Positions 1 through 26,190 of a stretch of DNA of 64,000 nt are shown here, in pieces. Position 1 is the first letter of the stretch; every line of letters begins with the position of its first letter. This DNA comes from Trichopria drosophilae (lineage: Eukaryota > Arthropoda > Insecta > Hymenoptera > Diapriidae), in assembly GCA_030407085.1 (NCBI GenBank), contig CM059582.1:29153001-29217000 (forward strand). Reading direction: 5' to 3'. Under the pieces are notes generated by a model. It searched no databases and had not been told where the DNA came from. It saw only the letters and a program-made list of their open reading frames with translations. The translations under genes and the position numbers were made by a program.

Positions 1-1
1 C

Positions 2-3000
2 CCACATGGACATTACGAATTCGATAGAATGCCATTCGGATTAAAAAATGCACCTGCAACCTTCCAAAGACTAATGGACATAATCTTATCAGGCCTACAA
101 GGTAACGAACTTTTTGTGTATCTTGACGATATTGTGATATACGCATCATCGTTAGAAGAACATGAGACCAAATGCGAGAAATTAATGAAACGACTAAGAA
201 ACGCAAACCTTAAATTACAACCGGACAAATGTGAATTTTTAAGAAAAGAAGTTTGTTATTTAGGACATATAATCAGCGAAGAAGGTCTAAAACCAGACCC
301 GAACAAAATCAATTGCGTACAAAAATTTCCAATACCGAAAAATCAGAAGAATATCAGACAATTTCTCGGACTCGCAGGATACTACCGTAGATTTATTGAA
401 AATTTTTCATCTATAGCCAAACCTTTATCAAATTTACTAAAAAACGATATATCGTTCAAATGGGAACAAGAAGAAAATGATGCATTTAACACACTGCGTG
501 AAAAATTATGCAACGCACCTGTCCTACAGTACCCTAACTTCAATGAACCTTTTATAATAACTACAGATGCATCAGGATATGCGATAGGCGCAATACTATC
601 TCAAGGAGAAATAGGTAAAGATAGACCTATTGCTTATACCTCTCGCGTACTAAACGATCACGAAAAGAAATACGAAACGTATGATAAAGAAGCTCTCGCA
701 ATATACTATGCTATATTACATTTCAGACCTTACGTTTATGGAAAACATTTTACGGTAGTTACTGATCATAAACCCCTCACATCATTCCGAACAAAAAAAG
801 ACCCCAATTCCAGAGTTGCCAAATGGATGTACAATTTATTAGAATACGAATTTGAAGTAATACATAAAGCAGGCAAATCAAACGTCAACGCAGATGCATT
901 ATCCAGAAATCCTATAGAAATACTAAAAATTAACGAATCAAATAAAAGAGCATACCTTAATAATACCATTACTAAGATGATGGAAAATATGGGGTGGAGA
1001 GGAGCCGGAATAGGCAGATATAATCAAGGAATTAGAGAACCAATCAGAATTAAAACCCAAACCGACCGAAAAGGACTAGGGTTTAATGGAGACAGTAATT
1101 ATTGGATTAATTACAGCAACCAAGATGCACAAGCACTAGAACCAATTAAATTCATTAAAAGTAAACATACAATAGCAAAGAACAAAATTCTTAAACAAAT
1201 ACTAGTACACAGTCCAATATATAATATTCAAAAACCTCGAAACGATAAAGTAAATTACACAGGGCCAAAATACAACCTTCCGGCTGTAATACCATTCTGT
1301 ACTAAATGTTATAAATTAAATCACATAGAAATAAATTGTCCTGGAATATTCGCACACGAAAAGAAAAAGGTCACAAAAACCGAAAAACATACCAAAGATG
1401 AAATAAACAATTTAGAACCTGAATGTAAACAAATCGCAAATATCACAGACTCAGCATGCCTGAGACGAAGTACAAGAAAAATCCAACCTCCCAAAAGACT
1501 AGAGATAAATAATAAAAAACAACAACAGACAAACTCATATAAAAGTGAGCACCAACAAAGAGGACGGCCTAGAACAAAAAATACGGAACCAACCAGAAAA
1601 CCACAGCAAAAGGATACAAATTACAACCTAAATAACGACAATATAGACTTAGACTCAAGTAACGAAAGCAACGACACTGACGAAGAAATCACTAACAAAT
1701 ATAATAAACGCTGTTGCAACAAAAACATTATAGAAATTAAAAATTATATATATATGCAAAAAGACAACGTAGCCCATTTCGTAACCACAACTGGGAAACT
1801 ATGCGATAATAGAAACTTAAAACACAAAAACAGGAACGATCTCCCAAAATTTGAAAACCTTACTTTGAATAAAATCTCAATATCAAAACAAAAAAATAAA
1901 TACCATTTTGCACTTCCAATAGCAACAGACACAGGAGAAAGTCAATTAACAATATTAAAAAATATTAAAACTGTAATAAAATCTTTAAAAAAAGAAGCAG
2001 ATAACTTAGATTTAAACACAATTAGCATTTCAAAAACTGAGAACATAATAGGCATAAACTGGACAAAAGTGAAAGATATTTTAGAACAAAATTTTAAAAA
2101 CGGCAAAACAAAGATAATAATCTGCAACGGAACAATTAACCACCCTGATGCAAACGACAGGGAGGACATTATAAAAGAACTACACTCTTCACCTGTAGGA
2201 GGACACAAAGGAATCAATAAAACCCTCAAAAGAATTAAACAAAATCATTACTGGGAAAACATGAAATCCGATATAGAAAAATTCATTCAATCATGCAAAT
2301 CCTGCCAATTAAAAAAATTAAGTAGAATTAAAACCAAACAACCAATGGTCATATCCGACACACCAAGAAAAGCTCTAGAAAAAATAGCAATGGATATTGT
2401 AATACCAAACAATAAAACTGAAGAAGGCTATGAAAACATCTTAACTATCCAAGACAATCTAACAAAATATTTAGTAGCTATACCTTTAAAAAAAGCCACA
2501 GCCTCAGACATAGCAGAAGCACTAACAAAACGATTTATATGCATTTTTGGCACTCCAAGAAGCATCCTAACAGACCAAGGGAAGAACTTTTTGAGCAAAA
2601 TAATGAAAAAAATGGCAAAACTCTTCAATATAAAACAAATAAAAACCACAGCATTTCACCCTCAATCTAACGGCTCATTAGAACGATCTCATCATGTAAT
2701 AAAAGAATACATTAAACATTTCACAAACAAACACTCTGACTGGGATAAATGGCTAGAATTAGCTAGTTTTTCATATAATACTAGCATTCACGAGGGAACT
2801 AAATACACACCTTTTGAACTAATGTTTGGTAGAATAGCAAAATTACCATCATCAAAACTTATCGAAAACGAAACCCAGGAAACATACAGTGACTATGTAC
2901 AAAACTTAGCCTCAAAACTTTACGACACACAGAAATTCGCAAGACAAAATATAACAACCGCTAAACTAAAATCAAAACATTACTACGACAAACATATTAA

Positions 3001-3193
3001 CCCAATTACATTTAATATAGGAGACCCTGTTTTTCTTCAAAAAAATCACAAAACTAGCAAATTCGATGACGAATATCAAGGCCCCTTCGAAGTACTCGAA
3101 CTATTTGATAACGGAAATATAAAAATAAGAATAAAAAACGAAGACAAAATAGTTCATGCGAATCGACTAAAATTATCAAAAATACCAATATAA
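2..3193 (+). CDS. pol: pol polyprotein, C-terminal part (RT, RNase H, G-patch, zinc knuckle, integrase)
   Basis: The frame is open from base 2, so the protein starts before the window; residue numbers here count from the ATG at 29. RT palm has YLDD near residue 31. RNase H shows TTDAS with Asp180. Residues about 309-352 match a G-patch (NMGWRGAGIG, then RKGLGF). Residues 424-437 form a canonical C-x2-C-x4-H-x4-C knuckle. A basic RRSTR segment and a charged linker follow. Integrase then shows a HHCC zinc domain (about residues 719-760), catalytic Asp789, Asp849 and Glu885 with 35 residues between the last two, and a GPF-type C-terminal domain (YQGPFEV). The enzyme would copy and insert the element. 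The roughly 400-residue insert between RNase H and integrase is unusual for Ty3 elements. No stop or frameshift is seen. Confidence 0.95.
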   Translation, partial: PHGHYEFDRMPFGLKNAPATFQRLMDIILSGLQGNELFVYLDDIVIYASSLEEHETKCEKLMKRLRNANLKLQPDKCEFLRKEVCYLGHIISEEGLKPDPNKINCVQKFPIPKNQKNIRQFLGLAGYYRRFIENFSSIAKPLSNLLKNDISFKWEQEENDAFNTLREKLCNAPVLQYPNFNEPFIITTDASGYAIGAILSQGEIGKDRPIAYTSRVLNDHEKKYETYDKEALAIYYAILHFRPYVYGKHFTVVTDHKPLTSFRTKKDPNSRVAKWMYNLLEYEFEVIHKAGKSNVNADALSRNPIEILKINESNKRAYLNNTITKMMENMGWRGAGIGRYNQGIREPIRIKTQTDRKGLGFNGDSNYWINYSNQDAQALEPIKFIKSKHTIAKNKILKQILVHSPIYNIQKPRNDKVNYTGPKYNLPAVIPFCTKCYKLNHIEINCPGIFAHEKKKVTKTEKHTKDEINNLEPECKQIANITDSACLRRSTRKIQPPKRLEINNKKQQQTNSYKSEHQQRGRPRTKNTEPTRKPQQKDTNYNLNNDNIDLDSSNESNDTDEEITNKYNKRCCNKNIIEIKNYIYMQKDNVAHFVTTTGKLCDNRNLKHKNRNDLPKFENLTLNKISISKQKNKYHFALPIATDTGESQLTILKNIKTVIKSLKKEADNLDLNTISISKTENIIGINWTKVKDILEQNFKNGKTKIIICNGTINHPDANDREDIIKELHSSPVGGHKGINKTLKRIKQNHYWENMKSDIEKFIQSCKSCQLKKLSRIKTKQPMVISDTPRKALEKIAMDIVIPNNKTEEGYENILTIQDNLTKYLVAIPLKKATASDIAEALTKRFICIFGTPRSILTDQGKNFLSKIMKKMAKLFNIKQIKTTAFHPQSNGSLERSHHVIKEYIKHFTNKHSDWDKWLELASFSYNTSIHEGTKYTPFELMFGRIAKLPSSKLIENETQETYSDYVQNLASKLYDTQKFARQNITTAKLKSKHYYDKHINPITFNIGDPVFLQKNHKTSKFDDEYQGPFEVLELFDNGNIKIRIKNEDKIVHANRLKLSKIPI

Positions 3194-3245
3194 TAAATTT
3201 AAGTACGTACAATAAAAACAAAAAAAAAAAAAGAATAATAACATA

Positions 3246-3265
3246 AATATATATATGTTTAACAG
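3246..3265 (+). promoter_or_regulatory. predicted splice acceptor for env mRNA
   Basis: A U-rich run ends in TTTAACAG at 3265. After splicing, no ATG occurs before 3309, which starts the env signal peptide. The ATG at 3255 would be in the intron. Spliced env mRNA is the rule in errantiviruses, but the use of this site is inferred. Confidence 0.5.
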
Positions 3266-3308
3266 GAACAGAGACAAACGAAGAACAGAAGTCAATATTA
3301 CGAACAAT

Positions 3309-5363
3309 ATGAATACTCTCATAACCACAGTTCTACTACTTATAACAATTCTGGACGTTCAAGCATTTATAGCATTCGATTGCGGAGCACAGAGTTCAAA
3401 CATATCCACAATCTCACTATTAAATACACAAGATTGCGAAATAGAAAAAAAATCAATCAAATCTGAAAAAATTAAAGCCCAGCTATTACAACTAAAAGAA
3501 TATGAAGAAATCCAAGTAACACAGTGTAAAATAGAAATTAACCGAATCATCCAATATTGCGGAATGCACTCACATATGTCTACAGTATCAAACGGTTTAG
3601 CAACATATATACTAGAAATATCACGAGACGAGTGTGACAAAATACACAACACAGGGACGTTAACTATAAATTCCAATATATTCCTAGATCAAATAACACC
3701 TAACAAAGTTCACTCCCGCAGTTTAAACATGGCTGGTACATCTCAAGTAGATGGAAATTGTAAAGGAGTAGAATATAGCGATTCGTTTGGTTCATGGAGC
3801 AACGTGGTAGTACATGCAACAGCAAAAATATTAATTCAAAAATATCAAGCTAGAATAAATCTTAATGAAAATAGACTACACTTAAGATCAGGAATATCAT
3901 ATCCTTTAACAGATAAATCTTGCCTAGACATCGAAGGAGGAAATACATACTGGGACACAATCCCGAAAGACTTCTGTGGAGCTAACAAATATGACGTATT
4001 ATACGAAGGATTTGTTGATAAGACTTATAATGAAGACAAAACAATAGTCTATTCACTCACAACAGACGAAATAACCTTTGCATTAGGAAAAAAAGGAAAG
4101 AAGAATATATGTGGCTATGAATTAACACTGACAGAACATCCTAAACTGATAATATTTGAATCACAAAATAACGGAGACTTCAAGAAACGCCCCATAAAAA
4201 CATGGAACCTCGATATATTCTCATATGTAAATTCCAAATTTGTTTATGTAGAAAGACACGTAAGACATCAGATAAAACAACTTTACTATGACATGCTGGT
4301 ACAGAGATGTGCCTTAGAAAAACAAGTACTCCACAATGCTCTATCATTAGCAACACATGCCCCAGATGAATTTGCCTACAATATCATGAAAGGCCCTGGA
4401 TACATGGCATTAGCAGCAGGAGAAGTAGCATATATAATGAAATGTATCCCAGTTGAAGTAAAAATTAGAAGAACAGAAGAATGTTACTCTCACTTACCAA
4501 TTACATACATCGAAAAAGAAATGTATATGACGCCCAAGACAAGAATAATTATCAATAAAGGAAATCAAATAACATGCAATAGTCTAGTACCACCAATGTA
4601 TTCAGTTAATAATATTTGGTACAAACTCCTACCAAATCCAGTACAGGCATCAGCCCCAGAACAATTAAAACCTCTAACGAAGCAAACTTGGACATATATA
4701 AACCCCCAGAATTTAGCCACAAATGGAATCTACAGCCAAGAAGACCTCAAGAAACTAAAAGAACATATAATGTTCCCCGCCGAAAAACCAGCACTCCTCA
4801 ATACTGTAGCAAGAGGTTTAACAGGACAACAAACAAACTATCAAGGTACATCAGTAACAAACTTATTAGACGAAAACTCCATAGGGAAAATCATAAAATC
4901 AGCATGGAACAAAACTTGGCAAAAGTTTATAATATTCGGATCAACAACAGCTGGTATAATGGGAATATTTGTAATAGTAAAAATAATAAAATCTATAATA
5001 GACACAGCAATCCATGGCTACGCACTACATAATGCTTATGGATGGTCAATCTTTTTATTAGGAGCTATTTGGGATTCTGTAACTCATCTTCTACTACACT
5101 TATCAAGGAAACACAATAACAAAAACAATAACAATGATACGAACTACCAACAAATTCCCCAAATCGAGCTTCAAGAAATAAAAATTGAACAAAACGAAAC
5201 ACCTAATTTAAACCTATCACAAGACACAAGAAATGTCGAAAATAACCAAATATACCCAAACCTACACAAAGAAACCATAGAAATTCAAAACGAACCGACG
5301 GAATTAAATGTAAAAAACCAATTTCCTAATAGAGAAAACAAAGCATTTACATTAAAAAAATAA
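3309..5363 (+). CDS. env: envelope glycoprotein, chuvirus-like type
   Basis: The ORF is open from ATG 3255 (702 aa), but a splice acceptor ending at 3265 would remove that ATG. The next ATG, 3309, starts a clean signal peptide (MNTLITTVLLLITILDVQA), so I prefer it (684 aa). The mature protein begins FIAFDCG and has many cysteines and NxS/T sites. Near the C-terminus is a membrane segment (about 4926-5000), then IHGYALHNAYGWSI and a second hydrophobic stretch (to about 5104), followed by a hydrophilic tail of about 85 residues. The FDCG start and the membrane-proximal pattern resemble glycoproteins of chuvirus-like negative-strand RNA viruses that have been captured by arthropod retroelements. 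That assignment is from family knowledge and needs a profile search. I see no baculovirus-F-like furin site. It would mediate particle entry. Confidence 0.85.
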   Translation: MNTLITTVLLLITILDVQAFIAFDCGAQSSNISTISLLNTQDCEIEKKSIKSEKIKAQLLQLKEYEEIQVTQCKIEINRIIQYCGMHSHMSTVSNGLATYILEISRDECDKIHNTGTLTINSNIFLDQITPNKVHSRSLNMAGTSQVDGNCKGVEYSDSFGSWSNVVVHATAKILIQKYQARINLNENRLHLRSGISYPLTDKSCLDIEGGNTYWDTIPKDFCGANKYDVLYEGFVDKTYNEDKTIVYSLTTDEITFALGKKGKKNICGYELTLTEHPKLIIFESQNNGDFKKRPIKTWNLDIFSYVNSKFVYVERHVRHQIKQLYYDMLVQRCALEKQVLHNALSLATHAPDEFAYNIMKGPGYMALAAGEVAYIMKCIPVEVKIRRTEECYSHLPITYIEKEMYMTPKTRIIINKGNQITCNSLVPPMYSVNNIWYKLLPNPVQASAPEQLKPLTKQTWTYINPQNLATNGIYSQEDLKKLKEHIMFPAEKPALLNTVARGLTGQQTNYQGTSVTNLLDENSIGKIIKSAWNKTWQKFIIFGSTTAGIMGIFVIVKIIKSIIDTAIHGYALHNAYGWSIFLLGAIWDSVTHLLLHLSRKHNNKNNNNDTNYQQIPQIELQEIKIEQNETPNLNLSQDTRNVENNQIYPNLHKETIEIQNEPTELNVKNQFPNRENKAFTLKK

Positions 5364-5399
5364 TAATAGTATATTCCTTATTTAATATTTACTACAAAA

Positions 5400-5417
5400 A
5401 CTCCTTTCTATCTACAG
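5400..5417 (+). promoter_or_regulatory. predicted splice acceptor for the second glycoprotein mRNA
   Basis: The pyrimidine-rich run CTCCTTTCTATCTACAG ends at 5417, and the first downstream ATG is 5442, the ORF start. This is a better acceptor than the env one and implies a separate subgenomic mRNA. Confidence 0.55.
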
Positions 5418-5441
5418 GAATCAACAAAAAAAAACAGAACA

Positions 5442-6347
5442 ATGAATACCACACTTTTACATTACTTATTACTCATAACCTTAGGAGTAAGAATCAAAGG
5501 CGAAACGATACTTGTAAAAAGTTGTGAAGTAAAATTTATGAAAACAATCGACTCATGTGACAGAACGTTAATAGTAGAAAACGATAAAAAAGTCAATATC
5601 TCAGTAGAATATTGCAAAAATATGCACAAGACTCGCAAAATACAACTTCTTGGAGTAGAAATCAACGATTTAGAAATAGACAAATATGCAGAAAAAGAAC
5701 TAACGACATTTGAAGACTGCAAAGATGATGGAGTTAACACAGAAGTAACAAACTACCTAATAACAGCAATAATAACAGAATATGAAACACTATTAGAAAA
5801 TAATAACATAATACTATATAACGGACAAGAATGCCCCGTGAATGAAACATGCTCCGACGACTATGAAGGCAGCTTTTGGGATACAATAATTACCACAACG
5901 ACACCATATCCCAAAATAGAACCAACTACAGAAATAATACAAAATAGCGATAACGATACAATAATCGAAGGTATGAGACCAAATAACAACGATACACCAA
6001 CAGTGGAAAACTTATCATCACAAACACTAATAGTTGTTGGGATTTACTGCCTTACCGTTACCATACTACTAACTATTATAATAGTAAAATTATGTAAACA
6101 AAATAAAAACAAACCTACAAACCAACAAAACACGTATGTAAAATTTAGTCAAGACGATATCGAAATAATGACACATACAGGTTCAAAACAAGATGAACCA
6201 ATATCCGACAATTTTGATAACATCCAATTCATTCTAACTCCTATTCAAGAAGATTCAAGACAGGAACCCATATATGACATACCTAAACCAACTACAAAAC
6301 TAACTAAAATTGAAATGATACGCACAAATGAAGAATTACAAAATTAA
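5442..6347 (+). CDS. second membrane glycoprotein ORF, probable truncated env paralogue
   Basis: The 301-aa type I membrane protein has a signal peptide (about residues 1-20), an ectodomain with six cysteines and five NxS/T sites, a Thr/Pro-rich stalk, one membrane segment (about residues 196-217) and an acidic tail of about 84 residues with tyrosine motifs (YVKF, YDIPKP). Two stretches match env in order: ILVKSCEVKFMKTIDSC against env IQVTQCKIEINRIIQYC, and CSDDYEGSFWDTI against env CLDIEGGNTYWDTI. I infer that it is the env N-terminal domain re-anchored on its own stalk and membrane segment. It starts 78 bases after env and has its own splice acceptor ending at 5417, with ATG 5442 the first downstream. 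The function is unknown: accessory surface protein, receptor-binding partner or block to superinfection are all possible. Confidence 0.85.
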   Translation: MNTTLLHYLLLITLGVRIKGETILVKSCEVKFMKTIDSCDRTLIVENDKKVNISVEYCKNMHKTRKIQLLGVEINDLEIDKYAEKELTTFEDCKDDGVNTEVTNYLITAIITEYETLLENNNIILYNGQECPVNETCSDDYEGSFWDTIITTTTPYPKIEPTTEIIQNSDNDTIIEGMRPNNNDTPTVENLSSQTLIVVGIYCLTVTILLTIIIVKLCKQNKNKPTNQQNTYVKFSQDDIEIMTHTGSKQDEPISDNFDNIQFILTPIQEDSRQEPIYDIPKPTTKLTKIEMIRTNEELQN

Positions 6348-7299
6348 GTTAAAAATGTAATAAATTTGTTTTAATCCTTAAAGAAGTCTACCTTATTCTC
6401 ACCTGACATTTCTCCTTTAACTCTATTATTTTAATAAGAAAATCCATGCCATCACATTACTGTACTACTTTTGTTTTTCTTTCTTCTTCTTTTGTTTTAA
6501 TTCCCTAGCTTCATTAGTATTATTTTTCTCATATCATATCCTCTAGTCATAAGCGTTGCAAGATGGAGCCAAGCCGAAAGGCTGGTAAAAATTACCTCAC
6601 CAAAAGAGAGATACATATTTTTTCTTTTTGGGAGAAGGTAGTGCGCAAGTTCTCATTGGTATAACCGAAATAACATATTTCTACATAACAATGAAGAAAA
6701 CTGAAAACTCCGCAACACAAAATTTTTTGTTTTCCCCCTTTTTTTTTCTTCTCTTCCTTTATTTTTTACAAAAAAACAACAATAGAAAGCATACAAGGGA
6801 TAGCATATTTCTCATCTGTGGGTAAAAGAAGTGAAGATAAATATATATAAATCTATATATATTCGCTCATACAAGTATATGAATAATATTAATAATAACT
6901 GACTACATATACATAAATGCAAAACAGCATATGTGTATATGAAAAATCTGTTTCAGGAACACTATCTACACACGGCAGATAAAATAAACAAATACAAAAC
7001 AAGCACAATAGATTTCAATTTACATCATTACAAATTTTCATAAATACAAATTTTTTTTTTTTTTTTTTTGTTATAGAATCTTTATTCTTTTTTCTCCTCT
7101 TTAAATCATAACCAAAAAAAGAAAAGTATATAATAATATTCTGCAATTGTGCTGCATAACATTGAATTTGATGAAATGAACAAAAAGTATATATATGTAA
7201 CGTATAAAGGACACAACAAATGTTTAGTATCAAAACAAATTTAATTAATTTCTAATCATTTTTTTTAGAGGATTCAAACCTCACATCACAGAAAAACGA

Positions 7300-7354
7300 T
7301 AAGAAACTCGCCGTTAAGTTAGGCTTGCCACATTTTAAAGTGGAGTGCGAGAAA
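7300..7354 (+). repeat. hairpin repeat copy A in the retroelement 3' region
   Basis: It is nearly identical to 7569-7622. An outer stem pairs CTCGC (7307-7311) with GCGAG (7347-7351), and an inner stem pairs CCAC (7328-7331) with GTGG (7340-7343) around an A/T loop. Its place between env and the LTR, in two copies, recalls the arrangement of constitutive transport elements of simple retroviruses. The role is inferred. Confidence 0.75.
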
Positions 7355-7568
7355 AATAATGTATTAAACTAAGTTAGTCTTTATATATATGTGCATATAT
7401 TTTTCTTACACTACGTACGTAAAAATTCAAAACCATTTTTAACTCTCGTAGAGTAAATAAACTTTGTATGGTTTCCTTAGGGCTTACCAGAAAATAAAGT
7501 CAACCTCGTAAATTCGAGAAGGAGTGAAATGAGACTAGGAAATTCCAGTATCAGAGTATAAAAAATGC

Positions 7569-7622
7569 TAAGAAACTCGCCGTTAAGTTAGGCTTGCCAC
7601 ATTTTAAGTGGAGAGCGAGAAA
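7569..7622 (+). repeat. hairpin repeat copy B in the retroelement 3' region
   Basis: This is the second copy, starting 269 bases after copy A. Both stems are kept while differences fall in the inner loop (one A lost) and in an unpaired bulge (GAGTGCGAG to GAGAGCGAG). That pattern suggests selection on RNA structure. Confidence 0.75.
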
Positions 7623-8360
7623 TGTACGTATTAAGAAGGATTATAATAAGTCATGTTCATTTTACCAAATCACTATTAGAACTTAAATGCTAGCAAAAAC
7701 AAAAAATATATACACTAATAAAACTGAAATTATTATTTATTCTTCTTTCAATAATTTTCATACAAATATATATATATATTTCTTTTTTTTAAGATACTCA
7801 TATTTTTCAAATTGCACGAATAAGAAATACCTTTGATAATAACATGTATGCCATTTCACAATTAACAAAATAAAATAATTGCACGAGGTCAAGTTACAAC
7901 TAACAACAAAACTAATAAACACATGCGTACAGTGAAAAAAAAAAAAAAAAAAAAAAAAAAACAAACAATGACACTATATTATTAAACATAAATATACGAA
8001 TTGCGTTTATTTCGAAAATAAGTAATCAAAATGTTTATACTGCTCATTCGATCCACTACGAAAAATACCAATGTAACAATTACGTTATCACTAGCCCGCC
8101 TCTACAAAAATTGTAATAATAATCTATGTAAACATTTGTAAAGCCAACTACAATGACTAGAACCGGTTGATCCGTTAACCCTTACAGAAATGACAAGTCT
8201 TATTTGTTCATCACTTTTCAAAACAACCAAAAGTTACGCCTACACGAAATTTGCACAATAATAAACCAAAGCATGCAACCATACTCAAGTGGAGGGACAA
8301 TCCAGCCAATGTCCGTAATACATGGAGCACAAAAGAATTTCAGAGAATTCTATCATTAAA

Positions 8361-8466
8361 CGCAGGAGGAATCCAGCAACTCATACAATAATATATATCA
8401 AGCGTAGGAGAAATCCAGCAACTCAAATAATAATATGTATCAAATGCAGGACGAATCCAGCCAAAA
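8361..8466 (+). repeat. 42-bp imperfect tandem repeats
   Basis: Units begin with CGCAGG at 8361, CGTAGG at 8403 and TGCAGG at 8445, exactly 42 bases apart, each followed by AATCCAGC. A weaker related unit precedes them near 8289. The array is inside the retroelement 3' region and its function is unknown. Confidence 0.7.
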
Positions 8467-9173
8467 CAAAAGAAAAAGCACACACAAAAACCAATAGAAT
8501 TTCTTTCTTTTTCGCTGCCAACAGAGATGTATTACCCATGGATCATATTCATCAACACTATGATGATAGCCATGCGAGATATATGGCATCAACACTTGTA
8601 TAACTATGGAAACATGCAACCAAATGGAAAATGTCTAAACAAATGACAAAGATGAATGGTTTTATTATCAGAATCTACCTTACAACAAAAAGAAACGAAA
8701 ACAATAAAACTAACAGGCGATTCATTAACAAACGACAAATAACTACTTAGTAGAAAACCAACCACTTCTTGCATGAAATCTTTAAACAATCTCACAGATC
8801 GCATAAAGTGTTTAATCAAATATGGATTCCACACATAAAAGGAAGGAAAATGTATCGATTTAAACTACGGAACAACCTAGATGACATCAATATTCCTAAT
8901 CACACAAAAGAAGATATCGTCTACTAGTAATAAAATACTGCATTTCTTCTAAGGATTCATGGAGCAAAATGTTCTAGACACACGAAAGGCTAAATTCTTT
9001 GTATTACATTTCATGTATAACAATTAAAAATATAAACAAAAAGCGACTATAATGTAAGCTGTTTGTAATACTAGTGGAAATCTCATGATAGTTAATCATC
9101 ACGCTACAATGCTTCCGCACTAACGCACTTACTAACGCATGTACTCACAAAGTCGGAGGGCCGACTTTCGACC

Positions 9174-9184
9174 GAGCAGGGGGG
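9174..9184 (+). other. polypurine tract
   Basis: The purine run AGCAGGGGGG sits immediately before the LTR TG. It is the expected primer site for plus-strand DNA synthesis, interrupted by one C. Confidence 0.55.
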
Positions 9185-10466
9185 TGTTACGTCCTACGTA
9201 ACGCACCTTATTTCAAAAATACCGGCTAAATATCCGATGCAATAGCGCGCCCGGCGTATACTAACTGAACCTCATAACAAATAACTTACCGATACCGATC
9301 GAAAATAGAGAACCCTATAATTCCTGAATTTTCACTCCCACTCACAGTTTCCTACATTACCAGTAGAGAGTAATAATATCATTAATTATTTTCCGAAATA
9401 GTCTCAACGGAAAATGTACGGGAAAATCTAAAAGTATCTTTAGAAAGTGTAGCAAACCGGACTAGCAACCCGTACCCTTGACAAACTCTATCTATTTCTA
9501 AAAAAAGTAATAAAAATTCCAAAGTACATCCGCTTTCTCACGCACACGCTTATATGACATACTTTTCTTTTCCAAGAAAATTCTTTTCAAAATAGCTTTT
9601 CATATAATATAAAAATTATAAACCAAAACTAACGAACAATAGAATGATAACATTGGTCGGATTAGTTAGATAGAAATAAATAGTATCTCATACAGAAAAC
9701 ACATTTATAAAATAAAATAAAACGTTTATTTATAATTACGAACAAATTCCGTTTTTTCCTTTTATTACAATAGATTCAACCACGAATTTTCATTAGTCAA
9801 ACTTCCAAACTGGTACCGAACAAACGAACAAATAAACATTAGCGTATAAAACATTGTAAACACCATCTCATGAATAAAGAATGAAGCTTTTATATATATA
9901 TTTATATCTATTACAAAATTGAACATCCTTTAAAATTTAGTATCTTGATAATCATGTTCTCAAATGTTACAATAATACAAAATTTATAAAAACAAACAAT
10001 CATTTTAAGAATACCTCATTGTTTATTCATCTCTTGTACGAAATTCATGCTTTATATCACTATATGTAAATTGCTCTTATAAACCTTCGATTAAAATAAT
10101 GTTAAATTGTACAAAAATCAACAACAGTTGTATTAAAACAATTAATGCAAAATAGTTTATTAAAAATACAAATTTACTATTAAAAACAACACAACGGCAT
10201 ATCAAAATTGCATAAAATCTATCGGATTATTAAAAAACTAATTTAGTAAATATTAACAAATAAATATCTCCAGTTCTATACAAGATACAACTACCGTTCA
10301 TTTTTGTACGATCTTAAAATTAACATAATTGTCTAAACACGCAAAAAGATTCTATTCAATTCGGACGGAAGCTGCAAATCTTGCATTCACACGAATTTTG
10401 GATAAAAAAATCCGTGACACGACGCAACGCTTCAAAACGGAACTGGGCACCACGGGCGGTATCCAG

Positions 10467-10503
10467 TATAAAAACAGCACCTCCTGGACCAAAAAAAGTC
10501 AGT
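10467..10503 (+). promoter_or_regulatory. LTR core promoter (TATA box and initiator)
   Basis: TATAAAA lies at 10467-10473 and the arthropod initiator TCAGT at 10499-10503, with the likely +1 A at 10501. The spacing is 34 bases, slightly long for a TATA promoter. This sets the U3/R boundary. Confidence 0.6.
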
Positions 10504-10614
10504 TAAGATTCAGCAGTCAACATCGAGCAGTTAAGCTCCAGCAGTAGTTGGACCACTGGATACAGACAGCCCAGCAGCCTAGGTTCCGGGAGTCGTCGAA
10601 CCAGGATCTCATAA
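10501..10614 (+). other. AUG-free leader exon ending in a perfect splice donor
   Basis: From the initiator to the donor there is no ATG. The exon ends CTCATAA before GTAAGT (10615-10620). As part of R, the same donor in the 5' LTR would serve the env acceptors (3265, 5417) and the acceptor at 11025. One leader could therefore feed several subgenomic mRNAs. Confidence 0.55.
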
Positions 10615-10659
10615 GTAAGTATTTCCCCTAGTTAAGATCAGGCGACTAACCTGAACCCG

Positions 10660-10836
10660 GACAGAGCACGGGACCAGGGCCAAATCTTTTGGCCCGGCGT
10701 TTCGATCCCTCCGGGCACGGGCGAACTCGTCTCCGCGGCAATTCTTTTTTTTTATATATATTTTTTTTGGGGGTAAACTATTTCCGAAAAGGGACAGAGC
10801 TCGGGACCAGGGTCAAATCTTTTGGCCCGGCGTTTC
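10660..10836 (+). repeat. direct repeat of a 44-bp hairpin inside the LTR intron
   Basis: Copies at 10660-10703 and 10793-10836 differ at two bases. Each can fold with GGGCCAAA against TTTGGCCC. In copy 2 the change of C to T in the left arm keeps pairing as U-G. T/A-rich stretches (10742-10770 and 10940-10972) separate and follow them. The role is unknown; they would be spliced out of leader-joined mRNAs but kept in unspliced RNA. Confidence 0.7.
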
Positions 10837-11025
10837 TATCTCTCCCTCGAAGAACTTGTAAACCCTTTCCTCGGTTTATTCCGGAATTGGCACGTGCCGA
10901 TGCGGAATCGACCCATAGGGAATTAGGTCATAGCCTTTTCACTTTTTTTTTATATATTATTTTTTTTTTATAAGTTCCCGCGTTTCTCCTTCCGCGAAAC
11001 TAAATTTGTCCACATTTTGTTATAG

Positions 11026-11222
11026 TGCCCCGAAATAATAAGGGCGTCCGGCGTCGCAAACGGGAGCGAGCCCGCAAATTATATAAATTCCTGGTGGAGC
11101 AACGCGCCCAACGAGAAGGGCAGCCAGCAGCCACCCCCGATCACAACCAGCCTCCTCCCCCGCAGAAAACAAAAATCACGCTGGAGGAATATCGGCGCCG
11201 TAACGCGATCAAAAAAAAATAA
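11026..11222 (+). CDS. small arginine-rich protein encoded within the LTR, start codon made by splicing
   Basis: The unspliced frame has no ATG. Joining the donor after 10614 (last base A) to the acceptor after 11025 (TTATAG) places A next to TG and creates an ATG, in frame with CCC CGA AAT and so on. The predicted 65-aa protein has an arginine-rich stretch (RRRKRERARK), a proline-rich centre (PPPP) and a basic end (EEYRRRNAIKKK). The TAA stop overlaps the first AATAAA. Its GC-rich codons differ from the A-rich pol and env. The composition suggests a nucleic-acid-binding or nuclear protein, loosely like Rev or Tat of lentiviruses, but that is inference and no homology is claimed. Coding was not tested by comparison. 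Confidence 0.5.
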
Positions 11223-11244
11223 ATTAAATATATAAAAAAATAAA
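11218..11244 (+). terminator. LTR poly(A) signals
   Basis: AATAAA occurs at 11218-11223, overlapping the stop of the small ORF, and again at 11239-11244. They would set the R/U5 border near 11260-11280. Confidence 0.55.
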
Positions 11245-11445
11245 TGATCACAAAATAAAAAAACCTATAAGAAAAAGAAAATCGAGTCATTATTTATTTT
11301 CACCCTTCTCCTTTCCTTTTGAACGGATACACTCGGCGGCTCCGTCCACCCTAAAAAGAACCCTCAAATCGACCCGTCTGGTCGATTTGGCCCTTTCACG
11401 GCAGAAAGATGGCGTCCCTGTTCGGCCGCCATCCCAGCCATAACA

Positions 11446-13760
11446 GATGTACTATATTGAATTAGGAATACAACAAATATTATAATTACAACAGATATTG
11501 CAGTAAATTTTTAGATGAGAATCGCACTGAAAAATATAACAATTAATTTTGACCTTCAACGAACCTTTTATCGAATTTGTATTTTCTAGTTGAAAATAAA
11601 ACTCATTGCAAGAAAACACTTCCACAGTAATATAACTTCTATTGACCAGAAAGAAAAATCCGAATATCCAATACAAAAATTACGATCTGTCTTTCCTGAG
11701 CATATACCTTTTAGCATATTTTCAACATCATTGTTCAATACTATTTTATAGATTCAGAACAGAATAACTTTAAGAAGATTAATTTCATAAACGACAAGGT
11801 AAAAGTTAAAATATAAGTTACGCTCTTTAATGGAACTTTAATTAAAGTATCGATTAATTTTTCTTTGCAGAGATTTAAAAACTCATCCACGATACAGATT
11901 TCCTTTCTATAAAATAGAATACAAAATGGGTGCTGTTAGAACGTTTTGGATATGTTCTTATGGTAAGTATTAATTCTGACCTAACAAGCAGCCTTGTATT
12001 GATAGCCAATCTATAACTGTTCAATATCAGTACATCGAGCAAATCAGACGAGACCAACCACTTTTGTTTAGTATATAATTAAAGAAACTGTATAGCAAAT
12101 TATTTTAAAAATCGCCGATTTTAAACGGAATTAATATTTATATCATATCTTTACATACTTTTAAGTTGTATAACTTTGGATCAACCTTCAAAGTAAAAAG
12201 AATTTATAACTGCTATTTTATAGAGATCTAATTATGTGAAAAGCTATACCGCGTGATGAAATTTTGTAGCATAGTTTTTTATGTGATACTTTAAGTAAGT
12301 ACACTTTTTATCTGCAGGACTTTTAATTTTATCGGGTTCGGAAGCTGTTACGTGTCATAGTTGTACTGAGATCAGTAAATTCGGTGAACCCAATACTTGT
12401 CAAACCACTTTTCATATCTTCCCTCCGATGACTTGTGGTCGTAATGAAATCTATTGCTATGGATTTAAGGGAAATTCTACATTACCACGTAAGAGAATAA
12501 GAAATAATAAACCTAGGATTTAAAAAAATCCTGCTTAAAAATATAGTGACGATTTCTGAATTTAGTTTTGTCTTATAATACTTCGTTTTTCTTTGTACGT
12601 AGTTTATTTCGAAATGTTTTTTATTAGTTTCCGCATACATTTGAGTATATTGAATAACCATGAATCTTATTTACTCAAAAACAGCTAGTACGTGGAATTC
12701 GATGCTAAATTTTTGTGTGAATTAAATTAAGTTGAAATACTCGATTTTCAGCTGGGAATGTACATGTGCATCGAGGTTGTACTGTAAGTAAATACTGTGC
12801 AGGCTTAATAAGTTTGCTGAGCCTCAAAACGGATAATAAATATAGCGAGAAGTCGAGTTGTACAATTTGTGAAGGAGATTTGTGCAATTCCTTTCAAAGT
12901 TTTGGAAACAGCGCCGACGATATACAAGAAATTTCATTTATAGGATTCATATCACTATGTTTTCTGGTAATGTGTTTAAATTGAGTACAAATTTAAGTAT
13001 AATTAATGTGTATTTATTATACAAAATGTTAATTCGTAGTATATAATCTATAAATAATAAGGGTTTTCCTGATGTGCGTATATCTATGATTAAATAAAGA
13101 GGTGTGGTTCTTTACTTTAAAAATATGGAATACATTTTCATATATTAAACTATTCATAAAACTATCCTATATATACCGTTTTCAATGTATTAGTGTTTAT
13201 CTTACTTTCCTGCATAATAAAAAAGAAAGATCGCAAATTTTTATTGAACTTTTAATAATTAAAGAAAAAGAGAAAATCAGTTTCTAACACTCTGAGCGCA
13301 TCATGCTATTTGTTTCCCTACATCCCTACGCTTCAGCGCAACAATCGCCATCGTCGGCAACCTGTTTTAAATAAACATTTCTCACATCCGATGACCTAAA
13401 TGCTATTTTGCATCCCATAAGGCGGGAGCAAAATTAACCTTTCTATTATTACAGAGCAAAATAAGTTTGTCTCAATCCTATTACAAAATACCATTTTGCT
13501 CCCTATATCGCGTGAGCAAAATATCACGATCTCGTATGAGAAAATAGTATATGCAACGAGGGAGACTAGGCGTTTGCAAATTCATTGTAATGGCTCATAA
13601 TCGACGGAAAACACCTAAGATGAACTAGGTTTGAAATCATTCTTATATAGATTTTCATGACTTGAAAATAGAACATTAAGAAATTAATTCTTATGTAGAA
13701 TTAGATGAGCTTGCTTGGTTGTGACGCCACAACAAATGATCTTGTTTCAATTTATCGCAA
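11446..13760 (+). repeat. segmental duplication, copy A (carries Ly6-1)
   Basis: It aligns along its length with 18593-26515: promoter region, all three coding exons, introns and about 780 bases downstream (TTTTGCTCC-rich stretch, then TTAATTCTTATG). Copy A lacks the insertions seen in copy B and therefore records the empty sites. Confidence 0.8.
11926..12984 (+). CDS. Ly6-1: GPI-anchored three-finger (Ly6/uPAR) protein
   Basis: Exons 11926-11962, 12318-12488 and 12752-12984 join to 146 aa; both introns are GT-AG and phase 1. A signal peptide (MGAVRTFWICSYG, then LLILSGSEA) precedes TCHSC. Ten cysteines follow the Ly6 pattern and end in Cys-Asn (LCNSF). A GNST glycosylation site sits at the exon 2/3 border. 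The C-terminus is hydrophobic (FIGFISLCFLVMCLN) after Gly/Asn/Ser residues suited to GPI attachment. A 5' UTR acceptor ends at 11870. Insect relatives act in septate junctions, channel or receptor modulation; the role here is unknown. The retroelement LTR ends about 480 bases upstream in the same direction, so LTR-driven transcripts are possible. Confidence 0.88.
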
Positions 13761-18969: not shown

Positions 18970-19340
18970 CTATTTATTGGATTTTTATTTTCTAATTAAA
19001 AAACAACTCTCATTGCAAGACTACGCTTCCACAGTAATACAACATCTATTGACCAGGTAGGACAATCCAAATATCCAGTTATGCACAAAAATTATATTCT
19101 GTCTTTCGTGGTTTGTAGCATCGCCATTGTTAAATACTATTTTTTGCATTTGAAACAAAGTAATTTTAAAGAATTCGCTTATTGGATGGCAGACATTTAA
19201 TTTGATAAACGACAAGGAAAAAGTTACGTAAGTCTCGCTCTCTAATGGAACTTTAATTAAATTAGCGATGAATTTTTCTTTTCAGAGATTTAAAAACCCA
19301 TCCACGATACAGGTTTCCTTTCTAGGTAATAGAATACAAA

Positions 19341-22300
19341 ATGGGTGCTTTAAGAACATTTTGGATATACTCTTATGGTTTGTATCAGTTCTTACATAAT
19401 CAGCAGTTTTGTATGTACAGCAAATTTATAACTGTTCATTTTTAATACATCGTGCAAGTCATACGAGACTGACCACTGTTGTTTAGAAAATAAGTACGCC
19501 AATTATTTAGCGAATTTAACAAAAAAACGCCAATTTTAATCCTTTTCGTCCCGAATGTCCAGAATCTGGACAAAACCTTCAACGCTGTAACTTTTATTCC
19601 AAACGCCGTTAAAAAAAATTAAAGCAAATCAAAATCGATAGATTTGGACTTCCTCTTTCAAATGACGTGATCAGAATCAACCGTAGATTTCAAAGAAAAA
19701 AGTTATGATAATTTGTTTGAAAAAAGGAATGGCGGTTTTTGACATTGGGCAATGCTGACCATTGTAAAACACGCTAATCGCGTCTTTTTGTTTAGCCCCT
19801 TCTTTTCCCGTCGAATATTACATCAGACAAAATGGCGGCTTCAACATGGCGTCTGCAAATTATAATTTTGTATGTTCTTGCAAAAATATCGATTATTTGA
19901 CCGTTTAACGTTTGAAACCGTGGTGAATTGCGATGAAAAAATAATTATTATGATTTGTGAATACCTGATCTTATCATGATTCATTAATAACCTTAAATTA
20001 GTTATATACAATTGACTCTTACCGATATTTTACGACTTTTCGTATCACTACTTACGTCTGAAATTGAAAATGGCAATATACGCTTATGACCTGTCAATTG
20101 TCGGTTTATAACCTAAACATTGAGTACAGCTCTACAATTTATTTATGAGAACGTTGTAAGTTTTCACTATGGCGATAAAGCACAATAAGAGTGCATTATG
20201 GGGTGAAACTCTTCACCCATGACTGACTAATTTCAAAATTGTTTATTCCCAACGTTACATATATTATACAGGGTCATCGAAAAGTATCGGACCCCCCTAA
20301 TATCTTCAATTAGAATGCACTTAGGAGAAAATGTCCAATAGCAAAGTTGTATGGTTTCAAGCAGGGAGTAAGACGATGACCTTGACTTTGACCTTGACCA
20401 TGTCCTTCAAGGTCATTTCAAGGTCAATCTTGTTTTTTTAAATAGAACTCCCTACATTTTATTGCATATTCTTATAGCTTATCTCGAGAGCTTTCCAAAA
20501 CACTATAATAAAATATTTTTTTATTAAGTACTTTTTGAGTTATAAAGGTTTGAAGTTAACAATTTGTTAAGTGGTGTGCGAGTCCGACCAGTTAAGGCAA
20601 GAGTGGTGTGTGAGTCCGGCCAGTTAAGGCAAATTTAATTCCAATTGGTTAGCTTGGGCAAAATATTTAATTGTACCAAACAATTCACAACAAATGTTCA
20701 AATTGTTGCCCTTCAACAGCCTGGCAATGTGTCAATCTGTTATAAACAGCCGAAACCGCATTCCGGTACGTTTCTGGCGGTATTAGTTCTATCTCTCGAG
20801 TTATTCTCCCTCTTAAATCATCTAAATCTTGAGGCTTGGTGGCATAAACTTTACTTTTCAAGTAACCCCACAAAAAAAAGTCAAGTGGGGTCAAGTCCGG
20901 AGACCGAGGTGGCTACTCAATATGACCCCTTCGCCCTATCCACCTGTCCTGAAATACCTCATTCAAAGATTGACGGACAATGACACCATAATGAGGTGGA
21001 GCTCCATCCTATTGGAAATAAATTTCATCCATATTTCCACCAGCTATGTCTCGAATAGCTGGAACAATTTGTTCGCGAAGCATGACTAGGTATACTTGTG
21101 CTGTCAAATTGCCTTCAATGAAGAAAGGGCCAACTGGTCTACCATTAAGAATACCAGCCCATACGTTAACTTTTTGTGGATATTGAGTATGATTGTCTCT
21201 TTTCCAGTGAGGATTAACGTCACTCCAGTATCTACAATTGTGTCTATTTACATTTCCAGTCAGTTCCAATGTTGCCTCATCAGAGAAAACAATATTATCA
21301 AGTAATAGAGGATCATCGACAATCATCTCCATCATAAGATCACAAAATTCGATGCGTCTATCAAAATCGTCTTCGGACAACTCTTGGACCAAATGGAGTT
21401 TGTATGGATGCCATTTATTCAATTTCAGAATTTTACTGACAGATGCATGACCGATTTCGTGTTCTTGTGCAACGCGATTGATGGAAATATGGGGATCTTC
21501 AACGAAAGACTGTAAAACATCTAATGCCTTATCATTATTTGTTGCTGTTTTAGGTCTACCAGATTTTGGGCGGCTTTTAACGCTACCAATGGCCTCGAAA
21601 CGTTGAATAGTACGGATTACAGTACTTTTGGAGATCCTATTATTTTCATTCCGAAAATGTTCATTAAATAATCGCGTTACTGTTTTATACCCTCTTTGTT
21701 GATCTCCCCATCCTCGCATCATTAACAGTGTTATTCGATCTCTTTCAGAAAGCTCCGCCATTCTTAATTAGAGCGAAGAAGAATTAATCAGGTAAGTGAT
21801 AGGAAATTGATCTAGATAATTAAGTAGAGAAAAATACTAATTATTAAGTGTTGGTCCAACTATCGATTTGTTTATTTTAACCAGCACTAGCAAAAAGCTC
21901 GTTGAGCAACTGAAAATCTAATAGATCAATTAATAATATTTACGAAAAATTTCTGGGCTATTGGAAACAAAATGAAGATGTTTGGGATAATCAATTGAAG
22001 CGCAATGGTTTCTTTTGTTACAAAAAAAATTTTTGAGGCTGTTCGTTTTCGTCCACGAGGTGACTGCTGCTCGCTAAGAAGAAGACAGCACTGCATCAAA
22101 GTTTCAAATCAGTGATCCGTATTGTTTGCTCAAGAGCTCGTACATTGGTGCCTGCGAGAGTGAGAGAATAAAAACTGGCCAACGCTTTCGGTCAGATTCC
22201 CGCTAACGCCTTCGGAAATCACGCATTCGAGCAGCTTCTCGCGATTACGTTCGGGCAGTTTTTCGCCAGAGCCTATTAGCATAATTGCTTGAAGCCGTAC

Positions 22301-24621: not shown

Positions 24622-24980
24622 GTGTAAATTTAAGTGTAATTAATGCTTGCTAATTCATAGTGCTAATGATTAATTTCGCAAGAAATATTGCTTAAGTTTG
24701 TAACAGTAAACAGTGTAGAGTCTATGTAATACGGTTTTCCTTATAAATAGTTTTGTTATTAAAGTACACTCTGCTTTATACAAATGCAATAAGTGTTTAC
24801 ATATAATGTTTCATCATGTGCTTCAAACTAAACATATAAAAGACGCAAAATACCTTTTATAATCAATTAAGAGCTGGGATTTTACACGATACAAATTTCC
24901 GCATTAAAAGTAGTGGTTTTGCTTTAGTTTTAGAAAATGCGCACAAGGGTTTCAACAAACAATATTGATCAATAAACAAA

Positions 24981-25259
24981 ATGAACGCCGTACTTCCAAC
25001 TGATTTAAAAACTTTTGTTGGTACAAGGCGAGTTCATCAATATACTCGGAAGTATGGACGCAACAAATTAATTTTCTTTAATTATTTAAGTTGCATTAAA
25101 TGTTCTCCTGGTGAGCCTTGCGCTCATTTTGCAATAGGAACTTCAGATTTCAACGATGTTAAAAATGTCAATAAAAAGAGGAATTTATGGGAAAAAGAAG
25201 CATCAAAAAGAACTGTAAGATCAAGTCGTCTAACTAATTTCCTTAACGCGGATAAATAA
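24981..25259 (+). CDS. short intronless ORF, unknown product
   Basis: A 92-aa ORF starts at ATG 24981 (context AACAAAATGA) and ends at 25259; AATAAA follows at about 25384. It is basic (TRRVHQYTRKYGRN, NVNKKRNLWEKEASKR), with a CIKCSPGEPC cysteine pair that could bind metal. No signal peptide or membrane segment is seen. I do not recognise a family. It could be a small nuclear protein gene, a retrocopy, or chance. It lies inside copy B of the duplication region, but copy A (after 13000) has no matching ORF, so it may have arrived after the duplication or been lost from copy A. Confidence 0.4.
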   Translation: MNAVLPTDLKTFVGTRRVHQYTRKYGRNKLIFFNYLSCIKCSPGEPCAHFAIGTSDFNDVKNVNKKRNLWEKEASKRTVRSSRLTNFLNADK

Positions 25260-25929
25260 ATTATAATTCAATAGTTAACCAGCAAAAAAATTGTATTCTT
25301 GATATTGTTCGTTATTTTGTTTAATGTGTTTTACCTTAAAATAATGCTATAGTTGTGTTTACTGGTAATATAAATTCATGTTCAATAAATACAAGATTTT
25401 TGTCATTTATATGATTGTATTTTTAATAAATGGCAAACCCATGTCTACACTATCAAACCCGTGGATGAAAAAATTAATAACTGCGCAAATAATGTAGTTG
25501 TAGCTCGGTGCTTTTGGAAATAACTTTCTTTGGTATAATTCAGTAAAAACAAAAAAATAGAAGTGATGAAATAAAGATATTTAATTTTATTAAATTTGCT
25601 TCCCCAAATAATGCCACTTTCCTTACAATCACCCATATCTATAATTAAATAACGAGGACTGGCTCTTTACTTAAAAAATGTTGAATACATATTTCATATA
25701 ATAATCTATTAATAAAACTATCCTATGTATCTTTTTCAATTTATTAATATTCTCTTACTTTCTTGCATAATAAAAAAGGAAGATCTCAATTTTTATTAAA
25801 CTTTCAATACATGATAGAAATAGTTAAAATATATACATTGTTTTAAATAAACATTTCTCACACCCGGTGCGGTAAATATTATTTTGCTCCTCATCTCGCG
25901 GGAACGAAATTGACTTTTCTCTTCTTAGG

Positions 25930-26190
25930 GAGCAAAATAAATATATCCGAGACCAATAGTATATTACTCAACGAGGGAGGTAAAATAAAGAATGTCTCAG
26001 GCTGCGTGTAATTTTTACCTGAGGTGAAGCCGAGGGTGAGAAACAGGCAGTCTGAAGCATTCTTTTTTACTTCCTGAAGGAAGTATACGATTTTTCTTTA
26101 TGGCCGGGAGGATAAGCGGCATCTTTCCTTCCGCTTGCGGGAGGAAAGTTGCTGCTTTCCTCCCGGTGTGAAGAAAATAAGTTTTTCTCA
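25930..26190. repeat. dispersed GC-richer repeat in the Ly6-2 downstream flank
   Basis: This insertion relative to copy A (near 13470) contains CTTCCTGAAGGAAG and TACGATTTTTCT. A related sequence lies at 61120-61345 (AACTTCCCGAGGGTTGAATA then CGATTTTTCT). The CTTTCCTTCCGCTTGCGGGAGGAAAG core is palindromic. Confidence 0.5.

What the first reader, a model, noticed from the sequence alone, without database searches (positions are those of the whole stretch)
10467..11244. LTR as a self-contained two-exon gene with a start codon created by splicing
Seen directly: TATAAAA (10467), initiator TCAGT (10499), no ATG in the leader, perfect donor ATAA/GTAAGT (10614/10615), acceptor TTATAG/TGCC (11025/11026). 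Joining gives A+TG, an ATG in frame with a 65-aa ORF rich in arginine, whose stop overlaps AATAAA. Inference: every LTR copy, including solo LTRs, would make this protein, and translation would depend on splicing. A basic, arginine-rich protein next to duplicated RNA hairpins in the same element raises the idea of a Rev/Tat-like regulator. I know of no such gene in Ty3 elements.
Basis: partly seen in the sequence, partly recalled or inferred. Interest (0 to 1): 0.9.

Follow-up and report, generated by a model that had tools for sequence, protein, structure and literature searches.

The report
Spliced mini-gene inside a retroelement LTR
The long terminal repeats of this retrovirus-like element carry their own small two-exon gene whose start codon appears only after splicing; DNA copies of the spliced form and protein-level conservation show that the gene is real, although what its arginine-rich protein does is still inferred.

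Summary
The window holds the 3' part of an ~18.0 kb Ty3-type, envelope-bearing element (3' LTR 9185-11445). The host genome gave three lines of evidence. (1) Five fetched LTRs of the same subfamily carry the exact spliced junction (CATAA|TGCCCCG, intron 10615-11025 gone) in DNA, and a sixth shows it too. Two such insertions have spliced LTRs at both ends and matching 4-bp duplications. So RNA spliced at this site was reverse-transcribed. Two other subfamilies have matched unspliced and spliced copies, again joining A to TG. (2) The protein frame is under purifying selection: pN/pS 0.22 (p=4.8e-9) against 0.48-1.58 in the other five frames. (3) 50 of 50 best-matching LTRs keep the frame open with no internal Met, so an AUG start needs splicing in the 45 that keep the intron; three are solo LTRs. 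The intron holds a duplicated hairpin, 93% identical in the most diverged subfamily where the rest of the intron is 59%. A Rex/Rev-like role (arginine-rich helix acting on intron-borne hairpins) is the best guess but untested. No homologue was found outside this genome in collections poor in insects.

The parts
9185..11445 (+). 3' LTR (TGTTAC...TAACA), 2261 bp, preceded by PPT GAGCAGGGGGG (9174-9184) and followed by TSD GATG (11446-11449)
   Evidence: end-to-end matches in all 28 loci (24 distinct places); flanks
10467..10473 (+). TATA box TATAAAA
   Evidence: TATAAATAC at this place in 7 of the 8 diverged loci that cover it, TATATATAC in L089
10499..10503 (+). initiator TCAGT, inferred transcription start about 10501 (start of R)
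   Evidence: TCAGT at this place in L088, L090, L092, L094, not in L089, L093, L095, L096. Start site itself inferred
10501..10614 (+). exon 1, no ATG; its last base A is the first base of the start codon
   Evidence: last exon base A in 5 of 5 subfamily donors read
10615..11025 (+). 411-nt intron GTAAGT...TTATAG
   Evidence: exactly absent in 5 fetched LTR copies and in a sixth seen around the junction only (L105)
10654..10714 (+). intron hairpin, copy 1
10787..10847 (+). intron hairpin, copy 2 (93% identical to copy 1 over 54 nt)
11026..11245 (+). exon 2; begins with TG, which completes the ATG; 3' end (poly-A site) inferred
11028..11222 (+). codons 2-65 and stop of the arginine-rich protein (start codon = 10614 + 11026-11027)
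11218..11223 (+). poly-A signal AATAAA overlapping the stop codon (further AATAAA at 11239 and 11254)
3255..5363 (+). context: envelope gene of the same element, Monjiviricetes fusion glycoprotein
   Evidence: PF24664 E=2.3e-242
2..3193 (+). context: 3' part of pol (RT, RNase H, G-patch, integrase) of the same element

Best explanation
The R region of this Ty3-type, envelope-bearing element is a complete small gene: promoter and start in U3/R, noncoding exon 1, a 411-nt intron, exon 2 coding a 65-aa arginine-rich protein, and the poly-A signal at the stop codon. Splicing supplies the start codon (A+TG), so in intron-bearing copies an AUG-initiated protein comes only from spliced RNA. SHOWN: the splice happened at these bases, and the protein is under purifying selection. 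INFERRED: transcripts that splice here and end at the nearby poly-A signal (from the 5', 3' or solo LTR) make the protein. It forms a long basic helix that binds the hairpins in the same intron, which exist only in RNA that has kept the intron. It thereby favours survival, export or packaging of unspliced genomic RNA, as Rex and Rev do. The gene would thus read out and regulate its own splicing. My estimates: real spliced and selected gene 0.95; acts on the element's own intron-containing RNA through the hairpins 0.45.
For: Splice: exact junction in DNA, L046-L050 and L105; the junction cannot be slid (exon A vs intron G on the left, intron G vs exon T on the right). Two spliced insertions have identical TSDs, TATT/TATT and ATTG/ATTG. 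Matched unspliced/spliced pairs exist in two other subfamilies (L089 with L092/L094/L104, 93-94% over the last 100 nt of exon 1; L090 with L095/L076, 92%). Exact-pattern counts genome-wide: AG|TG form 117, ATG form 11 (one of them an acceptor mutant), reversed-pattern control 0. Protein: pN/pS 0.22 pooled over three disjoint pairs, Fisher p=4.8e-9; dN/dS 0.09-0.20 for 11 of 12 sequences against the window; codon positions 0.81/0.89/0.52 with exon 1 0.51 and intron rest 0.59; 132 of 150 scored matches without a stop (my count). Structure: single-sequence model with a helix over residues 6-31 of the 65 (mean pLDDT 80, pTM 0.38). Hairpin: 95.5% of cells paired, slid versions 61.6% at most; 93% identical where the intron rest is 59%; the intron folds better than 99 of 100 shuffles.
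Against: No RNA or protein data. No sequence or family match to any RNA-binding regulator; no export signal recognised by eye. Covariation of the hairpin is thin: two pairs change on both sides, but 416 of 500 shuffles do as well, and the structure was taken from one of the sequences. In less diverged subfamilies the rest of the intron is itself 86-90% identical. One antisense frame also shows pN/pS 0.48, p=0.013, and L082 (0.42) and L076-L078 (0.47) are weakly constrained. Intron-less elements transposed with both LTRs spliced at least twice, so intron and hairpins are not strictly needed in cis, or are supplied in trans. A non-AUG start on unspliced RNA (GTG at 11025) is not excluded. The hairpins could serve packaging or reverse transcription without the protein.
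Confidence: 0.55

Rival explanations
1. The open frame and splice sites are chance features of GC-rich LTR sequence with no product.
For: The open frame alone is expected in 2.7-13.1% of shuffles; no homologue outside the genome.
Against: Exact spliced junction in DNA in three subfamilies with matched donors; pN/pS 0.22 with p=4.8e-9.
Confidence: 0.02
2. The protein is real but acts on DNA or transcription (Tat/Tas-like activator of the LTR) rather than on RNA; the hairpins do something else.
For: A small basic protein made from the LTR promoter would suit a feedback activator; U3 is long, 1.3 kb.
Against: No DNA-binding family found; the conserved companion element lies in transcribed intron sequence and folds.
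Confidence: 0.15
3. The protein counters host RNA silencing or another defence (small basic RNA-binding suppressor), explaining why LTRs, solo ones included, keep it.
For: Small arginine-rich proteins are common among viral silencing suppressors (recalled); selection on the protein.
Against: Gives no reason for the conserved hairpins in the intron or for making the start codon depend on splicing.
Confidence: 0.12
4. The hairpins are a packaging or dimerisation signal confined to unspliced RNA, and the protein is a separate accessory (nucleic-acid chaperone or other).
For: Splicing removes the hairpins, and spliced-LTR copies are rare (14 seen in all; 11 ATG-form against 117 AG|TG places), as expected if unspliced RNA is the preferred genome.
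Against: Because they lie in R, the hairpins are also at the 3' end of element mRNAs that end in R, unless spliced there too; that would blunt their selectivity for genomic RNA.
Confidence: 0.15
5. Splicing in R mainly serves expression control in cis: the donor suppresses the 5' poly-A site, as in foamy viruses, and the short ORF acts as an upstream ORF on the gag or env mRNA.
For: Donor in R upstream of AATAAA, the arrangement of foamy viruses (PMC3694450, passages read); the only GTAAGT on the + strand of window 1-11445 is this one.
Against: A cis-acting uORF need not conserve its amino acids, yet non-synonymous change is suppressed about five-fold.
Confidence: 0.06

Closest known systems
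CERV of Cer1 (C. elegans Ty3-type LTR retrotransposon), PMC10309623
   Same: An accessory protein of a Ty3-type element, made from spliced mRNA, needed for export of unspliced genomic RNA
   Different: 517 aa, five exons, exons 1-3 in the gag frame; here 65 aa, wholly within the LTR repeat, own promoter and poly-A signal, split start codon
HTLV Rex and its response element (PMC3434621)
   Same: Arginine-rich protein; response element in the LTR, in HTLV-2 in R/U5 and intact only in unspliced mRNA
   Different: Rex is 27 kDa and its coding exons lie outside the LTR (recalled); no sequence match; no export signal recognised here
MMTV Sag, an LTR-encoded protein; and MMTV rem, whose spliced form was found in endogenous copies (PMC11998498)
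   Same: A protein gene inside the LTR (Sag); a spliced accessory transcript, of the Rev-like gene rem, fixed as DNA recurrently
   Different: Sag is a superantigen encoded in U3 (U3 recalled), not arginine-rich; the rem intron lies in env, not in the LTR
Foamy virus R region (PMC3694450)
   Same: Major splice donor in R upstream of the poly-A signal
   Different: No acceptor or coding exon inside R (recalled)
Gypsy and BEL elements associated with chuvirus-type glycoproteins (PMC10084718)
   Same: LTR elements associated with Jingchuvirales-type glycoproteins in insects
   Different: That paper's abstract and Results section describe glycoprotein capture; the parts I read mention no LTR gene

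Membership tests
Ty3/gypsy-type LTR element with envelope | pol order RT-RNase H-integrase | tested here: met
   RVT_1, RNase H, integrase H2C2 and rve in that order
Ty3/gypsy-type LTR element with envelope | two LTRs with TG..CA ends, PPT, 4-6 bp TSD | tested here: met
   GAGCAGGGGGG then TGTTAC, TSD GATG; 5' LTR identical over 2261 bp
Ty3/gypsy-type LTR element with envelope | RT places with Ty3/gypsy in a tree | not tested
   assignment rests on domain order and Pfam only
Rev/Rex-type post-transcriptional regulator | protein from a spliced transcript | tested here: met
   spliced junction in DNA, (transcript itself not observed)
Rev/Rex-type post-transcriptional regulator | arginine-rich motif | tested here: met
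   VRRRKRERARK: all positions but E14 and A16 invariant in 10 aligned sequences; three further sequences left out of that alignment (L079, L080, L082) have changes in this stretch. Predicted helix
Rev/Rex-type post-transcriptional regulator | structured response element in the unspliced RNA | tested here: inconclusive
   conserved foldable repeat in the intron; binding unknown
Rev/Rex-type post-transcriptional regulator | nuclear export signal and export of unspliced RNA | not testable with these tools
   no experiment; no signal recognised by eye
Rev/Rex-type post-transcriptional regulator | sequence homology to a known member | tested here: not met
   none
LTR-encoded accessory gene (Sag type) | complete coding sequence within the LTR | tested here: met
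LTR-encoded accessory gene (Sag type) | superantigen-like type II membrane protein | tested here: not met
   65 aa, highly charged, no hydrophobic segment by eye (sequence)
CERV family | about 517 aa with H, M and G domains, overlapping gag | tested here: not met
   65 aa, two predicted helices, inside the LTR

The most novel reading that the evidence does not exclude
A complex insect retroelement carries an autonomous regulatory gene entirely inside its R region. Splicing both creates the start codon and removes the RNA element that its product recognises, so each intact LTR, even a solo LTR, is a self-reporting splicing switch that can act in trans on all relatives in the genome.
Probability: 0.4. 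Interest if true: 0.92.

Novelty: new variant of a known kind. Interest (0 to 1): 0.82.

Why it matters
Accessory regulators of the Rev/Rex kind are textbook features of complex vertebrate retroviruses; in Ty3-type elements CERV of Cer1 is the case found here. A selected, spliced gene confined to the LTR means that solo LTRs left in the genome are potential sources of a trans-acting viral protein, and it ties protein production to splicing through the start codon itself. The paired conserved hairpin makes a specific, cheap test possible. It also shows that DNA copies of spliced RNA can prove an intron from genome sequence alone.

Tried and rejected
Chance ORF: rejected by selection and spliced DNA copies. 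Intron gain instead of loss: rejected because the intron (with hairpin) is shared by diverged subfamilies, while intron-less copies of three subfamilies match exon 1 of their own subfamily. Post-integration deletion: rejected for C1:184.3 Mb and C6:24.56 Mb, where both LTRs lack exactly the intron and TSDs match. Elements on contigs C103 and C309 seemed to have an intron in the 5' LTR and none in the 3' LTR, but their flanks do not share a TSD, so they are left unexplained (recombination or assembly). Rfam gave only two sub-threshold hits. Four spliced-form copies (L081/L093, L085/L096, L102, L103) have no unspliced partner among the loci read, so the splice there is inferred only. L083/L097 is not spliced; its acceptor reads ACAA. 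L077/L091 has the acceptor but no donor, its upstream part being other sequence; L079 has a stop and an odd sequence before its AG. The search for GGTAGTAGTRAGTA did not complete. Region identities depend on a pairwise alignment in which the single hairpin of L090 aligned to copy 2. double-counted some LTR places (59 rows); one search replaces it with 50 distinct ones.

Rows left out: one search used 10 of 13 sequences (L079, L080 and L082 omitted as more decayed); one search used 9 of the 11 hairpin matches (the first copy of L088 is identical to that of the window; the first match in L091 is only a remnant); one search compared the first 60 codons of six chosen pairs out of the 13 sequences.

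Mistakes: (protein 4), 12 and 15 I sent the wrong reading frame of exon 2; the right frame was sent. That cost one protein search and one scan.

Full report
What the window shows. Positions 1-11445 are the 3' part of a large LTR element. pol (2-3193) has RT, RNase H, a G-patch domain and integrase; env (3255-5363) matches the Monjiviricetes fusion glycoprotein family (PF24664, E 2.3e-242); a 301-aa frame follows (5442-6347), matched to no family above cut-off. The 3' LTR is 9185-11445. Its ends are supported by end-to-end matches in all 28 loci aligned (24 distinct places), by the polypurine tract before it, and by a GATG duplication. The 5' LTR lies outside the window, 15,743 bp upstream, and is identical over 2261 bp, so the insertion is recent; the element is thus about 18.0 kb. 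The host genome is 936 Mb in 509 contigs and unnamed.

The open frame alone would not impress: 2.7-13.1% of shuffles do as well. What decides the matter is the other copies.

Splicing is shown by DNA. A search of the host genome with the 65-aa protein scored 150 of 207 candidates, at 71-100% identity; 132 of 150 have no stop and 18 have one (my count; these are the best candidates, so intactness is overstated). Among them, L046-L050 read ...GAACCAGGATCTCATAA|TGCCCCGAAATAAT: the intron 10615-11025 is exactly absent (they also differ from the window by a few other changes, such as a deletion in U3 of L047). L105 shows the same junction. The junction is unique: sliding it by one base either way breaks the match. 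Two of these insertions have spliced LTRs at both ends and matching TSDs, C1:184.3 Mb (TATT/TATT) and C6:24.56 Mb (ATTG/ATTG). Reverse transcription explains this: the minus-strand strong-stop copies the 5' end of the RNA, so a spliced R gives two spliced LTRs (established retroviral mechanism, recalled).

The design is conserved. In five subfamily representatives the donor is A|GTAAGT or A|GTGAGT (window, L088, L089, L090, L097). The acceptor is AG|TG in four of these five; L083/L097 reads ACAA there. The sequence upstream of the donor differs between subfamilies, yet the last exon base is A in 5 of 5. A sixth unspliced locus, L077/L091, has the acceptor but no donor, its upstream part being other sequence. 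Two further subfamilies have both forms: L089 unspliced with L092, L094 and L104 spliced (93-94% identical over the last 100 nt of exon 1), and L090 unspliced with L095/L076 spliced (92%). Four more copies have the spliced form without a fetched partner (L081/L093, L085/L096, L102, L103). That makes 14 spliced-form LTRs seen. Genome-wide, an exact pattern for the start of exon 2 preceded by AG occurs 117 times and the ATG form 11 times (one of the 11 is the acceptor mutant); the reversed-pattern control gives 0 for both. The donor followed by the hairpin start occurs 82 times.

The protein is selected. Three disjoint pairs pooled over the first 60 codons give 33 of 131.5 synonymous and 23 of 408.5 non-synonymous sites changed: pN/pS 0.22, Fisher p 4.8e-9, no stop codon in the six pairs compared. 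The other five frames give 1.14, 0.94, 1.49, 0.48 and 1.58, each with stop codons in at least one pair; the 0.48 frame is antisense and reaches p 0.013. In one search, 11 of 12 sequences give dN/dS 0.09-0.20 against the window and one (L082) 0.42; among the other pairs L076-L078 gives 0.47. Weak values fit copies decaying after insertion (inference). Against the most diverged subfamily (L078/L090) codon positions are 81%, 89% and 52% identical, with exon 1 at 51% and the intron outside the hairpins at 59%. In the window's own subfamily, 50 of 50 distinct LTR places keep the frame (65-70 aa; length changes sit in the poly-A run at the C-terminus), 45 have donor and acceptor intact and 5 are spliced in DNA. 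None has an internal Met, and the unspliced R and U5 contain no in-frame ATG, so in the 45 no AUG start exists without the splice; a GTG start is not excluded. These 50 were top matches of a DNA search (40) or of the protein search (10), and many are paired LTRs of one element, so they are neither a random nor an independent sample. Three are solo LTRs by their flanks (L010, L017, L032).

The hairpins. The intron holds two copies of a ~54-nt repeat (10659-10712, 10792-10845), each folding into a long hairpin; the whole intron folds with z -2.23, 1 of 100 shuffles doing as well. Across nine variants 95.5% of pair cells are standard (4 of 500 shuffles reach this; slid versions 23-62%). Two pairs change on both sides, a count that 416 of 500 shuffles reach, and the structure was taken from one of the sequences, so covariation is only suggestive. 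Against L078/L090, which has a single copy, the repeat is 93% identical where the rest of the intron is 59%; against L088, L089 and L097 it is 94-100% where the rest is 86-90%. Conservation is not absolute: L089 and L091 carry changes, and L091 keeps one full copy and a remnant of the other.

What it probably does. A 65-aa protein with an arginine-rich core predicted as a helix (single sequence, pTM 0.38), started only after splicing, beside a conserved RNA structure that exists only in RNA that has escaped that splicing, is the layout of a Rex/Rev circuit. HTLV-2 has its Rex element in R/U5, intact only in unspliced mRNA (PMC3434621, passages). Foamy viruses have the major donor in R before the poly-A signal (PMC3694450, passages). 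In a Ty3-type element, CERV of Cer1 is needed for export of genomic RNA (PMC10309623, abstract and two Results sections). The resemblance is functional only: no family, structure or homology search found a relative, and searches of viral and prokaryote-genome contigs found none. These collections are poor in insect DNA, so absence there says little about other insects.

Precedents and novelty. LTR-encoded proteins exist (MMTV Sag), and spliced proviral DNA was reported for MMTV rem, also a Rev-like gene (PMC11998498, passages). Chuvirus-type glycoproteins beside Gypsy and BEL elements are known (PMC10084718, abstract and Results). Ten literature searches showed no LTR gene of this kind in a Ty3-type element among the titles and abstract openings listed (4 to 20 papers each, of up to 1,753 matching); the library is open-access only. 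Hence a new variant of a known kind: a complete two-exon gene in R with a splice-made start codon.

Limits. There are no RNA data; all copies come from one genome; the start site and poly-A site are inferred; and the paralogous hairpin rows are not independent.

Noticed in passing
window 3255-6347: The same element carries a chuvirus-type fusion glycoprotein and a second, 301-aa frame with (by eye) a signal-like N-terminus and a membrane-like segment, matched to no family above cut-off.
   Followed up: partly
window 3265 and 5418: Acceptor-like TTTAACAG and TCTATCTACAG would place a signal-peptide-like Met of env and the Met of the 301-aa frame first after LTR exon 1, as if one LTR donor served several mRNAs.
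   Followed up: no
window 962-1081 (residues 321-360 of the pol frame): A G-patch domain lies between RNase H and integrase in pol.
   Followed up: no
L029, frame from 627: Tandem NENKYENEIINE-like repeats between protease and RT; a length difference there might explain why this element is about 190 bp longer than others.
   Followed up: no
G000 contigs C103 and C309: Elements whose 5' LTR has the intron and whose 3' LTR lacks it, without matching TSDs; recombinants or assembly joins.
   Followed up: partly
window 11365-11389; L100: A short U5 inverted repeat (CAAATCGACC..GGTCGATTTG) is also present in the most diverged subfamily (seen by eye).
   Followed up: no
window 20265-22771: 97%/95% inverted repeats around a 250-aa frame with weak, below cut-off matches to Tc-type transposase helix-turn-helix families.
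   Followed up: partly
window 49074-57465; 11814-13543 vs 19229-26259: Two sets of long direct duplications (mostly 77-91% identity), outside the element.
   Followed up: no
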